Part shown: piece by piece, positions 29,644 through 36,396 of the stretch
How the letters are laid out: every line of letters starts with the position of its first letter
Position numbering within the stretch: position 1 is the stretch's first letter
Source: Zwartia hollandica
GTDB taxonomy: Bacteria > Pseudomonadota > Gammaproteobacteria > Burkholderiales > Burkholderiaceae_B
Assembly: GCF_019923725.1 (NCBI RefSeq)
Contig: NZ_JAHXRI010000010.1
Location: 458,636 to 522,635 of the forward strand
DNA length: 64,000 nt
Direction: 5' to 3'
Translations under genes and position numbers: made by a program
Notes under the pieces: model-generated
Database searches by the model: none
Told to the model about the DNA's origin: nothing
What the model saw: the letters and a program-made list of their open reading frames with translations, nothing else

Positions 29644-30867
29644 TCAGCGCTTTTTACGAGGTGCCTGGACCTTCCAGCGACGATGCACCCACCACCATTG
29701 CTCAGGATGCCGAACGATTAACAATTCCAGAGCTTGGTTATACGCTCTTGTGTTGCGTTGAATTTCCGCACCAACGTCCTCCTCATTAATCGCCGTAAGC
29801 GCAGGCAGAAACTCTAGGACGTGCGTGCCGTCCGGCTCGCGCCACGAACACGCTGGGATCACCGGCGCACCCGTTGCAAGGGCGATAACTGCCATGCTTT
29901 TATAGGTTCCCGCGGTATGGCCAAAAAACTCTACCGGAATACCCTCTGGACGTCTTGCATACTGATCAAAGGGAAATACCACCGCATCCCCGCCTTCAAT
30001 CGTCTGGACAATTTCCTCCAGAGATCCACGACGGCCCACCACACCAAAACCTGCCTCATTGAAGCGACGTGTGAGCATGTCGCTTAACCAGCGTGGCTTG
30101 ATCGGGCGGCGTAAAAAATGAATGCGTCCCTTAACCTGCGGGAAGTGCTCAATACCCGCGACCGTGGAGACTTCAAAATTCCCAAAATGTCCGGTCAAGA
30201 TCAAGAGGCCTTTCCCAGCCTCAAAGGCATTAATCATGCCTGGTACACCAAGAACACGGACCATGCTCTTCTTTTGCTCAGCCGATAGAAAGCGGAATTT
30301 CACAAGCTCGGTCAGTAACGACCAAAGATGTCCGTAGTGTGCTTGCGCGAGACGCTCTATTTGTATGGGATCAACTTTGCCACCATAGACACGCCCTAGA
30401 TTCTCGAGAATGACACGCCGACGGTATGGCAACCAGCGATAAATAAATTTCCCAGCCCAAGAGGGTGCAATGACTTTGGGTACCCTCAGCGCAACCGCCG
30501 TTGCAGTTGTTTCTGAATGAGTCAACGATATTTTTATTTCAGCGACAAGGTACCTACCAAGAACAACTTCTGCGACCGGGGTCACTTCGATATGCGGTGC
30601 ACCGTACTCGTCACGCCACACAGAAAAATCCATCGCCGTAATGGTATTGAGCGCAGTCTCAGCTGAGAACAGCTTCAGGCAAGCCTCTTTTGCAGCAAAT
30701 CTGGCTGCTAAGCTTGCCGCGCGACCTGGACCATCGCCTGCGTCGGCGATCTCGGTGGCGGAGAATAGCTTGTGAAGCTCACCAGGCATGGCCTCAATGA
30801 GGCGCACGATACGCTCAATTTCGACAGTGTCGACCGCGCAGCCATCCGGGAGAGGTTGCTCAGACAC
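29644..30867 (-). CDS. Fusion of AcpS-type 4'-phosphopantetheinyl transferase and LpxL/HtrB-type acyltransferase
   Basis: A two-domain protein of about 407 residues. The N-terminal ~130 residues are an AcpS-like phosphopantetheinyl transferase: Asp13 in DTVEIERI, FSATEI, SLAARFAAKEACLKLF (Glu in KEA) and ISLTHSETTATAVAL. The C-terminal ~270 residues are a lysophospholipid/lipid A acyltransferase with HFGNFE (His227 and Glu232, the HX4E catalytic motif), RRPIKPRWLSDML and PVIPACSWREPDG. I start at the GTG at 30867, which gives the AcpS N-terminal length; an ATG at 30936 would overlap the upstream gene by 55 bases. It probably activates the operon's own carrier protein and transfers the finished acyl chain to a membrane acceptor. 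Confidence 0.82.
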   Translation of the reverse strand: MSEQPLPDGCAVDTVEIERIVRLIEAMPGELHKLFSATEIADAGDGPGRAASLAARFAAKEACLKLFSAETALNTITAMDFSVWRDEYGAPHIEVTPVAEVVLGRYLVAEIKISLTHSETTATAVALRVPKVIAPSWAGKFIYRWLPYRRRVILENLGRVYGGKVDPIQIERLAQAHYGHLWSLLTELVKFRFLSAEQKKSMVRVLGVPGMINAFEAGKGLLILTGHFGNFEVSTVAGIEHFPQVKGRIHFLRRPIKPRWLSDMLTRRFNEAGFGVVGRRGSLEEIVQTIEGGDAVVFPFDQYARRPEGIPVEFFGHTAGTYKSMAVIALATGAPVIPACSWREPDGTHVLEFLPALTAINEEDVGAEIQRNTRAYNQALELLIVRHPEQWWWVHRRWKVQAPRKKR

Positions 30868-30881
30868 TACGGACGCCGGCT

Positions 30882-32153
30882 TTAACGTATCGCACGCAGC
30901 AATACTGCGGCATTCGTGCCCGCAAAGCCACGGCAAAGTACCAGCACGACATCACTACGCGTTTCACGATTCTGTTTGGTGATGTTTAGCCCAGCGCACG
31001 AAGCAGCCAATTGTTCCAAGTTGGCAACGCCCGGCACAACACCTCGCCTTGCAGCCTCAAGACCGATGGCAATATCGACGAGACCGGATGAAGCGAACAG
31101 GTGCCCAATCGACCACTTGTTTGCTGTCACGGGCGGCATATCTTTACCAAAAATGCGCAACAACGCTGCCGTTTCAGATGCGTCGGATTGTTCGGTACCA
31201 TTGCCATGCGCAACTATCATTCCCACATCAGACGGCTTGAGCGCAGCATCCGTCAACGCAAGCTCTATCGCGCGGCTTAAGCCGTCGCCATCATCGCGAA
31301 TACAGAAAATTCCCTCTCCTTCAGAGGCATCGCCGCCCCCAAGGTATTCGCCTAGGATCGTGGCGCCTCGCTGCTTGGCACTCGCTTCGGTTTCAAGCAA
31401 CAGCGCCGCAGCACCCTCACCCAACACACACCCATCATGTCGTGAGTCGAATGGACGCAACACATCTTTGGAAACTAAACCAACTTGATCCAGGTAAAGC
31501 AACGTCTGGGGCTCAATCGGTGCGTCATGTGCGATTGCCACAACACGCTGCGCATCGCCTTCGCGCAATGCCCAGGCACTTTCAATGACGGAAAGAATAC
31601 CGCTGGTGGTGTGATTCGTAATACAGCCGTTGGGGCCTTTCAACTGATTGCGAATACTGACATGACACAGCACATTGTTCGGCAAGGAACGCAACAACCA
31701 CATTGGATTAACGGTGTTGGACAACTCTTTACCAAAGGTGGCGAGACTATCTCCGCTTTCTGCCATCAGAGGAAAAAAATCATAGTTCACCTCGAACGCA
31801 CCACCACCTGAGCCAACATAACAGCCCGTCTGGTCCGCGTACTTGGCAGCGGCCGCCTCATCAAGCGTTCCCGTATATGCAGGTAACCCAGCCTGTTCGA
31901 TCGCTTGCGTGCCCGCGTAAATACCGAAAACATCAGAGCGACGCACAAGCTTAAGCAACTTGCGATCCCCTAAAAGTTTTCCGCCGTTGTAGTCAGGCAC
32001 TTCAGCTGCTTGGCTATTTGGCCACTTTTCAGTATCCCAACCCACAATGGGTGCGACCATCGAACGGCCCGCGCTCAGGGTGTCAACAATGGCGGCGGGA
32101 TCCAAACCGGCGGCACAAATCGCACTATTTCCGGTGATAACGATTCGACTCAT
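30882..32153 (-). CDS. Ketosynthase-like protein lacking the catalytic Cys (chain-length-factor-like)
   Basis: A 423-residue protein of the beta-ketoacyl synthase fold. The His and Lys of the active site remain (AHGNGT, His316; NKWSIGH, Lys346 and His351), but the nucleophile motif TACASG is replaced by NHTTSG at 180-185, so Thr182 stands where Cys should be (codon 31608-31610). This is the situation in KS-beta/chain-length-factor subunits of type II polyketide and aryl-polyene systems. It lies five bases after an intact ketosynthase, so a heterodimer is likely. Pseudogene decay is improbable because the frame is open and other motifs are kept. Confidence 0.85.
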   Translation of the reverse strand: MSRIVITGNSAICAAGLDPAAIVDTLSAGRSMVAPIVGWDTEKWPNSQAAEVPDYNGGKLLGDRKLLKLVRRSDVFGIYAGTQAIEQAGLPAYTGTLDEAAAAKYADQTGCYVGSGGGAFEVNYDFFPLMAESGDSLATFGKELSNTVNPMWLLRSLPNNVLCHVSIRNQLKGPNGCITNHTTSGILSVIESAWALREGDAQRVVAIAHDAPIEPQTLLYLDQVGLVSKDVLRPFDSRHDGCVLGEGAAALLLETEASAKQRGATILGEYLGGGDASEGEGIFCIRDDGDGLSRAIELALTDAALKPSDVGMIVAHGNGTEQSDASETAALLRIFGKDMPPVTANKWSIGHLFASSGLVDIAIGLEAARRGVVPGVANLEQLAASCAGLNITKQNRETRSDVVLVLCRGFAGTNAAVLLRAIR

Positions 32154-35635: not shown

Positions 35636-35640
35636 CGTGA

Positions 35641-36396
35641 TCAACCCGAAATCGCAAAGCCGCCATCCACCACAAGGGTGTGGCCATTAACCCAAGCAGC
35701 CTCAGGCAAGCACAACAGATACACCGCATCGGCAACGTTCGTGGGCAACAAGCTGGGTCCGGCCGGCGTGCGTGCCGCAAACTCCGACAAGACCTGCTCT
35801 CGATTCGGAAAATGGCTCAAGGCATCAGTATCTACAACACCCGCGGAGACAGTGTTCACGCGAATGCCACGCGGCCCTAACTCTTGGGCAAGTGTGCGTA
35901 CCAAGGACTCTAGCGCGGCTTTCGATGCACCAATAAACCCATAATGTGGCATCGCTCGCTGAGCACCCAAACTCGACATGGCTATGATGCGCCCCCCGTC
36001 CTTCATCAGCGGGGCCGCATGCTGCGCAAGCAAGTTAACTGCAAACGCGTTGGTTTCAAGGCACCAACGGAAATGTTTGAGCGTCATGTCCATCGCTGGT
36101 TTCAACACGCCTGAGGCCGCATTGCTAATGACGATATCTAGACGACCGAATTCTTTAGTGATGATCTCAAACATCTCAGTCACGCTATCAGGCACGCCCA
36201 CACTGGCTTGCACAGCAATTGCCCGACGACCCATTGCGCGAACCTCTGCGCAGACCGCCTCGGCTTCATCCGAGCTGTTGTAATAATTGGCGATGATGTC
36301 ACAACCGGCCGATGCCAGCTTGAGCGCGCAGGCGCGCCCAATGCCGCGCGCGGCTCCGGTGACTAAGGCAACTTTGCCAGACAGGGGCAGACTCAT
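35641..36396 (-). CDS. fabL: FabL-type enoyl-ACP reductase (SDR)
   Basis: A 251-residue SDR that carries the marks of Bacillus FabL rather than FabG: SNAASGVLKPAMDM, SSLGAQRAMPHYGFIGASKAA, VSAGVVDTDALSHFPNRE and TPAGPSL. The cofactor loop is VTGAARGIGRACALKLA. FabL reduces the trans-2 double bond of enoyl-ACP with NADPH and is resistant to triclosan. First gene of the operon; its presence implies that the product chain is at least partly saturated. The family call is by recalled motif similarity, so a FabG-like function remains possible. Confidence 0.78.
   Translation of the reverse strand: MSLPLSGKVALVTGAARGIGRACALKLASAGCDIIANYYNSSDEAEAVCAEVRAMGRRAIAVQASVGVPDSVTEMFEIITKEFGRLDIVISNAASGVLKPAMDMTLKHFRWCLETNAFAVNLLAQHAAPLMKDGGRIIAMSSLGAQRAMPHYGFIGASKAALESLVRTLAQELGPRGIRVNTVSAGVVDTDALSHFPNREQVLSEFAARTPAGPSLLPTNVADAVYLLCLPEAAWVNGHTLVVDGGFAISG

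What the first reader, a model, noticed from the sequence alone, without database searches (positions are those of the whole stretch)
29644..36396. Self-contained type II acyl-chain operon of unknown product
Seven tightly packed genes (fabL, fabG, long ACP, double hot-dog dehydratase-like, active KS, Cys-less KS, AcpS-acyltransferase fusion) include every step from carrier activation to transfer of the finished chain. The set recalls two known classes: aryl-polyene clusters (KS/CLF pair, dehydratase, KR, ACP, LpxL-type acyltransferase) and rhizobial acpXL-fabZ-fabF2-fabF1-lpxXL clusters for very long-chain lipid A acyl groups. It differs from aryl polyenes by having an enoyl reductase and lacking ammonia lyase and exporter genes, and from rhizobia by its PPTase fusion and FabL. 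The product may be a special acyl group on lipid A or another glycolipid.
Basis: partly seen in the sequence, partly recalled or inferred. Interest (0 to 1): 0.78.

Follow-up and report, generated by a model that had tools for sequence, protein, structure and literature searches.

The report
Dedicated lipid A acyl-chain assembly operon
A freshwater bacterium carries a compact seven-gene set that probably builds its own special, likely very long, saturated fatty chain and attaches it to the outer-membrane lipid A, taking over from the usual lipid A acyltransferase.

Summary
In detail: seven packed minus-strand genes (29644-36396) encode a FabL-type enoyl reductase, FabG, a 142-aa ACP, a double hot-dog protein, a KS with intact Cys-His-His, a KS without the Cys, and an AcpS-acyltransferase fusion. 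It lacks FabH and FabD, so it is not fully self-contained. The gene order recurs in 60 of 60 loci from a genome scan, as far as contigs reach; versions without AcpS occur in other families, some Legionella-like. It belongs to neither aryl-polyene nor rhizobial AcpXL clusters, but its acyltransferase groups with rhizobial LpxXL, which puts very long chains on lipid A. The usual late acyltransferase gene between metK and dapF is gone in 11 of 14 operon-bearing genomes of the genus with that site assembled, and present in the one genome lacking the operon. The dehydratase seems to have one composite site, Glu from its N half and His from its C half. Best reading (0.57): a dedicated system that makes a saturated, probably very long chain and attaches it to lipid A. 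Chain length, start and acceptor are inferred, not measured. New variant of a known kind.

The parts
35641..36396 (-). FabL-type enoyl-ACP reductase (P0007), Tyr-x6-Lys kept
   Evidence: NF005975 338.3 bits, cut-off 328; best solved relative 3oic/3oid, E 9.5e-64; YGFIGASK
34877..35644 (-). FabG-type 3-oxoacyl-ACP reductase (P0006); likely start ATG at 35635
   Evidence: TIGR01830 271 bits, under its 298 cut-off; 43% to E. coli FabG
34350..34778 (-). long acyl carrier protein, 142 aa, Ser47 in GLDAESIDFLD, conserved C-terminal extension
   Evidence: PF00550; AESIDFLD in 58 of 58 rows; 83-97% identity to the window over the 10 other rows of A4
33469..34350 (-). double hot-dog dehydratase (P0004): Glu55 in N half, His196 in C half
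   Evidence: AF2 model, mean pLDDT 86; double hot-dog matches; residue mapping to FabZ; conservation
32159..33472 (-). ketosynthase with Cys178/His318/His355 (P0003)
   Evidence: FabF-like; residues kept in 56 of 56 rows
30882..32153 (-). Cys-less ketosynthase partner (P0002), Thr182 at the nucleophile position; His316, Lys346, His351 kept
29644..30867 (-). AcpS-type phosphopantetheinyl transferase fused to an LpxL/LpxXL-type acyltransferase (P0001)
   Evidence: PF01648 and PF03279; profile hits 3qmn AcpS at 9-128 and 5kn7 lipid A acyltransferase at 167-405
29612..29643 (-). likely intrinsic terminator (palindrome around GCCTCGCATGCGAGGC, then a T-run)
   Evidence: read from sequence; not listed by the pattern scan
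34779..34876 (-). 98-nt gap before the ACP, the only sizeable gap; a second promoter is possible
   Evidence: read from sequence; no consensus promoter listed there

Best explanation
A dedicated type II acyl-chain assembly system for lipid A. The AcpS half of the fusion can charge the long ACP with phosphopantetheine. The KS works as a heterodimer with its Cys-less partner to elongate the chain on that ACP; the partner most likely sets chain length and may also decarboxylate malonyl-ACP. FabG reduces, the double hot-dog protein dehydrates using Glu from one half and His from the other, and FabL saturates. The acyltransferase half, apparently without a membrane helix of its own, then moves the finished saturated, probably very long chain from the ACP to lipid A, standing in for the lost LpxL. 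Shown by sequence: the genes, motifs, conservation, clades and absence of the usual gene. Inferred: heterodimer, chain length, priming route, acceptor.
For: Order kept in 20 of 20 and 60 of 60 loci as far as contigs reach. The acyltransferase joins rhizobial LpxXL, split from LpxL, LpxM and relatives with support 98/95. The metK-dapF site is empty in 11 of 14 operon-bearing same-genus genomes with an assembled site and occupied in the sole operon-less one, G237. The own genome has LpxC and only two PF03279 proteins, the fusion and L113. In the Legionella-like genome G449 all three PF03279 proteins lie in the operon's clade. Legionella lipid A carries 27-oxo-28:0 and similar long acids (PMC7867332, passages); L. 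pneumophila lpg0359 is listed as a putative ACP and lpg0361/lpg0362 as FabB (PMC13200437, passages), which fits the layout. The rhizobial system also pairs a KS with a Cys-less KS: Cys to Glu in 7 of 7.
Against: No chemistry. Zwartia whole-cell profiles show mainly C16:0 and cyclo-C17:0, with no very long acid in the rows I saw (PMC10535154, passages); the routine method may miss them. The missing LpxL may be one or few events on one branch, so the genomes are not independent. Three of 14 operon carriers of the genus keep the gene (G265, G252, G247), as do G071 and G065 of genus g5. A strong PF03279 match (E under 1e-50, a limit I set after seeing the list) is also missing in 38 of 234 operon-less genomes of the family, among them the listed ones of genera g28 and g32, so its absence alone does not call for this operon. 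AcpS motifs are lost in L030 and L031 and altered in L045. One of 53 partner KSs has Cys at the nucleophile position (L110). That G449 is a Legionella relative is inferred from GC 0.37 and neighbours named by eye. The LpxXL grouping is a split in a midpoint-rooted tree with long branches.
Confidence: 0.57

Rival explanations
1. Same machinery, but the chain has ordinary length (C12-C18): a private supply line for a late lipid A acyltransferase, not a very-long-chain system.
For: The fusion seems to stand in for an ordinary LpxL; nothing in the sequence fixes chain length; whole-cell acids seen are ordinary (PMC10535154, passages).
Against: A private KS pair, ACP, reductases and dehydratase look needless for a chain that housekeeping FAS makes; the own genome has another FabF (652 bits) and a FabI-like protein (280 bits, under the 337 cut-off of the model used, which no control genome passes either); the nearest acyltransferases in the tree are LpxXL.
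Confidence: 0.18
2. The acyl chain goes to another membrane lipid, for example an aminolipid or glycolipid, and the loss of LpxL is coincidence.
For: Acyltransferases of phosphatidylinositol mannosides are among the solved relatives (5oce, 5f2t); Zwartia has unidentified aminolipids and phospholipids (PMC10535154, passages); 38 of 234 operon-less family genomes also lack a strong LpxL match.
Against: Nearest clade is LpxXL; in this genus the usual gene is missing in 11 of 14 carriers and present in the one non-carrier; all three PF03279 proteins of G449 are in the operon's clade.
Confidence: 0.17
3. An aryl-polyene-like or other polyene pigment system.
Against: FabL would remove the double bonds; the KSs form their own clades, apart from ApeO and ApeR; ApeD is PF01553; no acyl-ACP synthetase or transporter is among the seven; Z. 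hollandica is described as unpigmented (PMC10535154, passages).
Confidence: 0.03
4. On the partner KS alone, compatible with the best explanation: it is mainly a malonyl-ACP decarboxylase that primes the chain with acetyl-ACP (KSQ-like), not a chain length factor.
For: His, Lys and His are kept in 53 of 53 true partners, unlike the rhizobial partner, which has lost the first His and the Lys in 7 of 7; the operon has no FabH; acetyl-ACP can start elongation by FabB or FabF (PMC8666670, passages).
Against: Position 182 is Ser, Thr, Ala or Gly (Cys once), not the Gln of KSQ (Gln is recalled); a partner may keep these residues for structural reasons.
Confidence: 0.3

Closest known systems
Rhizobial acpXL-fabZXL-fabF2XL-fabF1XL-(adh)-lpxXL cluster for very long chain lipid A acyl groups
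   Same: Dedicated ACP, dehydratase, KS plus Cys-less KS, terminal PF03279-type acyltransferase of the same larger clade
   Different: KS order reversed; Cys site Glu with first His and Lys lost, versus mostly Ser/Thr with His, Lys, His kept; single versus double hot-dog; no FabL or AcpS seen in the seven fetched, and a FabG-like gene in only one of them (L168); ACP not AcpXL; KSs in separate clades
Operon in Legionella-like genomes (G449, G308); probably L. pneumophila lpg0359-lpg0362
   Same: FabL, long ACP, double hot-dog, KS, Cys-less KS, acyltransferase in the same order; each KS in one clade with the window's
   Different: No AcpS part and no FabG within the set; in G308 FabL lies 3.4 kb from the ACP (L048). 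Locus numbers from PMC13200437 (passages); equivalence to named Legionella genes is inferred
Aryl-polyene cluster (E. coli CFT073)
   Same: KS with chain length factor, ketoreductase, dehydratase, ACPs
   Different: No enoyl reductase in its gene list; different acyltransferase family; KSs apart
Streptomyces type II polyketide KS and chain length factor
   Same: Active KS beside a chain length factor KS, genes adjacent in the same order
   Different: Neither KS groups with the streptomycete pair; the window pair comes with a full reducing set
Bacillus subtilis FabL (organism of 3oic/3oid recalled)
   Same: Same family by NCBIfam cut-off and best solved relative
   Different: Here an extra enzyme beside a FabI-like protein, tied to one operon

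Membership tests
Rhizobial acpXL-lpxXL cluster | ACP of the AcpXL family | tested here: not met
   35.8 bits against cut-off 83; no match at E 1e-15 in the own genome, 19 of 200 phylum genomes have one
Rhizobial acpXL-lpxXL cluster | KS pair orthologous to FabF1XL/FabF2XL | tested here: not met
   separate clades (6 of the 7 fetched rhizobial pairs used)
Rhizobial acpXL-lpxXL cluster | one KS of the pair lacks the active Cys (a feature seen here, not one I found stated in the passages read) | tested here: met
   52 of 53 true partners here; 7 of 7 rhizobial
Rhizobial acpXL-lpxXL cluster | LpxXL acyltransferase | tested here: inconclusive
   98 bits against cut-off 273 for PRK06553 (that this model is LpxXL is recalled), yet joined with LpxXL of 5 clusters in the tree, 98/95
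Rhizobial acpXL-lpxXL cluster | product is a very long acyl chain on lipid A | not testable with these tools
   needs lipid analysis
Aryl-polyene cluster | ApeD-type (PF01553) acyltransferase | tested here: not met
   the window has PF03279, ApeD PF01553
Aryl-polyene cluster | KSs related to ApeO/ApeR/ApeC | tested here: inconclusive
   the window KSs form their own clades, but ApeO and ApeR have long branches and ApeC was not in the tree
Aryl-polyene cluster | polyene product, so no enoyl reductase | tested here: not met
   FabL passes its family cut-off
FabL enoyl-ACP reductase | NCBIfam equivalog cut-off and Tyr-x6-Lys | tested here: met
   338.3 vs 328 bits; motif
Holo-ACP synthase (AcpS type) | Asp and Lys-Glu-Ala motifs; domain score | tested here: met
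   TIGR00556 54.2 vs 45.35 bits, but TIGR00516 acpS 37.9 is under its 59.8 cut-off; Asp13 and Lys60 kept in 46 of 48 fusion-type rows, Glu61 in 45 of 48
Holo-ACP synthase (AcpS type) | phosphopantetheinyl transfer to the operon's ACP | not testable with these tools
   needs assay
FabZ/FabA-type dehydratase | catalytic His and Glu/Asp of the hot-dog dimer | tested here: met
   His196 aligns with the FabZ His in the C half, Glu55 with the FabZ Glu in the N half; kept in 57 of 57 and 56 of 57 rows, the other row unreadable
Type II PKS chain length factor | groups with streptomycete CLFs | tested here: not met
   separate clade, two CLFs used

The most novel reading that the evidence does not exclude
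A second, separately evolved family of dedicated lipid A acyl-chain assembly lines, shared by Burkholderiales and Legionella-like bacteria, in which (i) the partner KS keeps His-Lys-His and primes the chain by decarboxylating malonyl-ACP while also setting its length, (ii) a composite double hot-dog enzyme dehydrates very long substrates, and (iii) in Burkholderiales the enzyme that charges the carrier was fused to the enzyme that unloads it, after which the ordinary LpxL was discarded in most of a freshwater genus.
Probability: 0.3. Interest if true: 0.78.

Novelty: new variant of a known kind. Interest (0 to 1): 0.6.

Why it matters
It would give a genetic basis for long lipid A acyl groups outside rhizobia, including a candidate gene set in Legionella-like bacteria, whose 27-oxo-28:0 lipid A acids are documented (PMC7867332, passages). 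The ten answered paper searches, as far as their listings and the passages I read go, showed no assignment of these genes to that product; the library lacks most subscription journals. The contrast of two kinds of Cys-less partner suggests that KS pairs for long lipid A chains arose at least twice, and it makes replacement of LpxL by an operon testable in harmless freshwater strains.

Tried and rejected
Aryl-polyene reading: rejected on acyltransferase family, FabL and KS clades. Membership in the rhizobial cluster: rejected for the ACP and the KSs, kept as 'works like'. Plasmid search with the Cys-less KS: 342 records, all under 60% identity; the 25 listed have 31-33%, 24 of them Streptomyces. 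AF2 of the long ACP gave a poor model (mean pLDDT 64), so its C-terminal extension stays unexplained. G506 shares only the long ACP and a FabG 8 kb away, in another gene setting. I first counted G254 as lacking the operon because its fusion was not found; it has the ACP, so of 32 genus genomes only G237 lacks both.

What was left out of counts. Searches used the window and 61 loci (L016-L035, L045-L051, L079-L112), not L053-L078 (same genus again), and kept only rows with 75% of the query length, so the AcpS-less acyltransferases are not among the 48 rows. L050 was taken out of the Cys-less KS count because its active KS had been picked for a cut-off partner; L110 is a true partner with Cys and is counted. 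L082 has unreadable bases at Glu55. In the KS tree six housekeeping FabF loci were not recovered by my ORF rule, FabF_G000 entered short (340 aa), L167 and ApeC were left out. In the acyltransferase tree LpxXL of 5 of 7 rhizobial clusters was used. The metK-dapF site was looked at in 17 of the 32 genus genomes and in G071. In the hydropathy check the LpxL-like protein of G237 scored as low as the operon's acyltransferases, and E. coli LpxM 1.06, so 'no membrane helix' is a weak point.

Papers: passages only of seven papers (PMC8253772, PMC11901934, PMC5613085, PMC13200437, PMC7867332, PMC10535154, PMC8666670); for all others only search listings.
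Full report
WHAT IS THERE. Seven minus-strand ORFs fill 29644-36396. Pfam and NCBIfam scans give FabL (35641-36396; 338 bits, cut-off 328), FabG (34877-35644), a 142-aa ACP (34350-34778), a double hot-dog protein with FabA/FabZ signal in its C half (33469-34350), two FabF-like ketosynthases (32159-33472 and 30882-32153) and an AcpS domain followed by a lipid A acyltransferase domain (29644 to about 30867). 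The fusion most likely starts at a GTG at 30867. Genes overlap or are 14 nt or less apart, except for 98 nt before the ACP; a palindrome with T-run follows the operon (the pattern scan does not list it). No FabH or FabD is in the set, so the finding's 'every step' is too strong.

WHO CARRIES IT. The window genome (3.22 Mb, 25 contigs) belongs with freshwater Alcaligenaceae: the same operon lies in Zwartia panacis, Z. vadi, Jezberella montanilacus and a Sheuella MAG. Of 32 genomes of its genus (its own included), 30 have the fusion, 29 the ACP, and 31 one or the other; only G237 has neither. Of the other 236 genomes of the family only G065 and G071 have them. All seven genes in the same order are present in 18 of 20 fetched loci, the other 2 being cut by contig ends. 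A scan of one genome per species with the ACP alignment gave 60 loci, nearly all titled as Betaproteobacteria or Burkholderiales; 44 of 60 show all seven in order and the other 16 break off at contig ends. These sets overlap. In 43 of the 44 the match to the fusion begins within its first 10 residues, so the AcpS part is included; the exception is L077, the same contig as G071 by its length.

OLDER RELATIVES. In 369 genomes drawn from the class, 9 have the long ACP. Besides the own genome, 7 of the other 8 carry the operon or the part that their contig holds: ACP, double hot-dog, KS, Cys-less KS and, in the 5 where the contig reaches, the acyltransferase; FabL is in 6 of 7, FabG only in G282 and G296. 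G506 has only the ACP and a distant FabG. In G296, G449, G308 and G556 the acyltransferase has no AcpS part; in G282 the AcpS region is present but Lys-Glu-Ala has become Lys-Arg-Ala. G449 (GC 0.37) and G308 (0.40) have the operon near genes that read by eye as rpoA and rplQ and look like Legionella; this is inference. L. pneumophila lpg0359 is listed as a putative ACP and lpg0361 and lpg0362 as FabB (PMC13200437, passages), which fits that layout.

ACTIVE SITES. The KS keeps Cys, His and His in 56 of 56 rows. The partner KS has Ser 24, Thr 22, Ala 5, Gly 1 and Cys 1 at the nucleophile position in 53 true partners; His316, Lys346 and His351 are kept in all 53 (54 of 54 rows, one of which, L050, is an active KS). 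The ACP motif AESIDFLD is in 58 of 58. In 48 fusion-type rows the acyltransferase His-x4-Glu is kept in 48; AcpS Asp13 and Lys60 in 46 and Glu61 in 45, lost in G065 and G071 (genus g5) and altered in G282. By hydropathy the operon's acyltransferases show no clear N-terminal membrane helix: the peak in the first 60 residues is 0.22-0.64 in the four AcpS-less ones and 0.73 in the window, against 1.56 in E. coli LpxL and 1.06 in LpxM, but the LpxL-like protein of G237 also scores low.

COMPARISON WITH KNOWN PAIRS. In seven fetched AcpXL clusters the partner KS has Glu at the Cys site in 7 of 7, with the first His and the Lys lost, while the other KS is canonical. One of the seven (L168) has a FabG-like gene between KS and dehydrogenase. 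In a 49-row tree the window KS and partner each form one clade (100/99 and 100/100), separate from the rhizobial KSs, two streptomycete KS/CLF pairs and housekeeping FabF; the division between Burkholderiales-type loci (with G282) and the others appears in both. The acyltransferase tree of 53 rows joins the operon clade (100/99) with rhizobial LpxXL and splits both from LpxL, LpxM, the metK-dapF genes and L113 (98/95, midpoint root).

LOSS OF THE USUAL GENE. The usual site reads metK, one or two lpxL-type genes, dapF, DUF484, xerC (metK, dapF, DUF484 and xerC named by eye), with two lpxL-type genes in G065 and G247. I looked at 17 of the 32 genus genomes. Of 14 operon-bearing ones with the site assembled, 11 have metK directly beside dapF (G000, G267, G239, G253, G251, G249, G241, G264, G244, G245, G238); G265 and G252 keep one gene and G247 both. 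Operon-less G237 keeps one. G254 and G256 are cut by contig ends. G071 of genus g5, an operon carrier, keeps one. Over the genus, a strong PF03279 match (E under 1e-50, a limit set after seeing the list) is missing in 25 of 31 operon-bearing genomes and present in G237; over the rest of the family it is missing in 38 of 234 operon-less genomes, so absence is commoner beside the operon but not confined to it (counted by hand). The own genome has LpxC but only two PF03279 proteins, the fusion and L113, which passes the PRK08905 cut-off. In G449 all three PF03279 proteins lie in the operon clade. The losses may be few events on one branch, so these are not independent counts.

MECHANISM. Shown: gene content, motifs, conservation, clades, absence of the usual gene. 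Inferred: AcpS charges the ACP; KS plus partner elongate; FabG, the composite dehydratase and FabL complete each cycle; the acyltransferase half moves the saturated chain to lipid A. 'Very long' rests on the LpxXL grouping, on the presence of a separate housekeeping FabF and FabI-like protein and on the long lipid A acids of Legionella (PMC7867332, passages). The primer may be a normal acyl-ACP or acetyl-ACP made by the partner KS.

VERDICT. Observation confirmed, interpretation partly supported. It works like the rhizobial very-long-chain lipid A system but is not a member of it: a new variant of a known kind, widespread, with three unusual features (AcpS-acyltransferase fusion, composite dehydratase, missing LpxL in most carriers of this genus).

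Noticed in passing
L030 10182-11446 (G065): The Cys-less KS is split by a frameshift near codon 263, and the AcpS region of the neighbouring acyltransferase is eroded, as in L031: the operon may be decaying in this second genus.
   Followed up: partly
L052 9139-9540 (G506): The long ACP type also occurs beside other genes, without the KS pair: possibly another long-ACP system.
   Followed up: no
L145 (G449:C12:61075-62700): Two adjacent PF03279 acyltransferases outside the operon fall in the operon's acyltransferase clade in a Legionella-like genome.
   Followed up: partly
window 34350-34778: The ACP has a conserved C-terminal extension of about 60 residues; profile hits to solved structures end at or before residue 80.
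   Followed up: partly
L053, L062, L069, L083, L111: Record titles call these MAGs 'Bordetella parapertussis' although they carry this freshwater-type operon; they look mislabelled.
   Followed up: no
window 38804-42474: TRAP transporter genes (DctM, DctQ, DctP) next to an amidohydrolase.
   Followed up: no
window 28599-28904: High potential iron-sulfur protein (PF01355).
   Followed up: no
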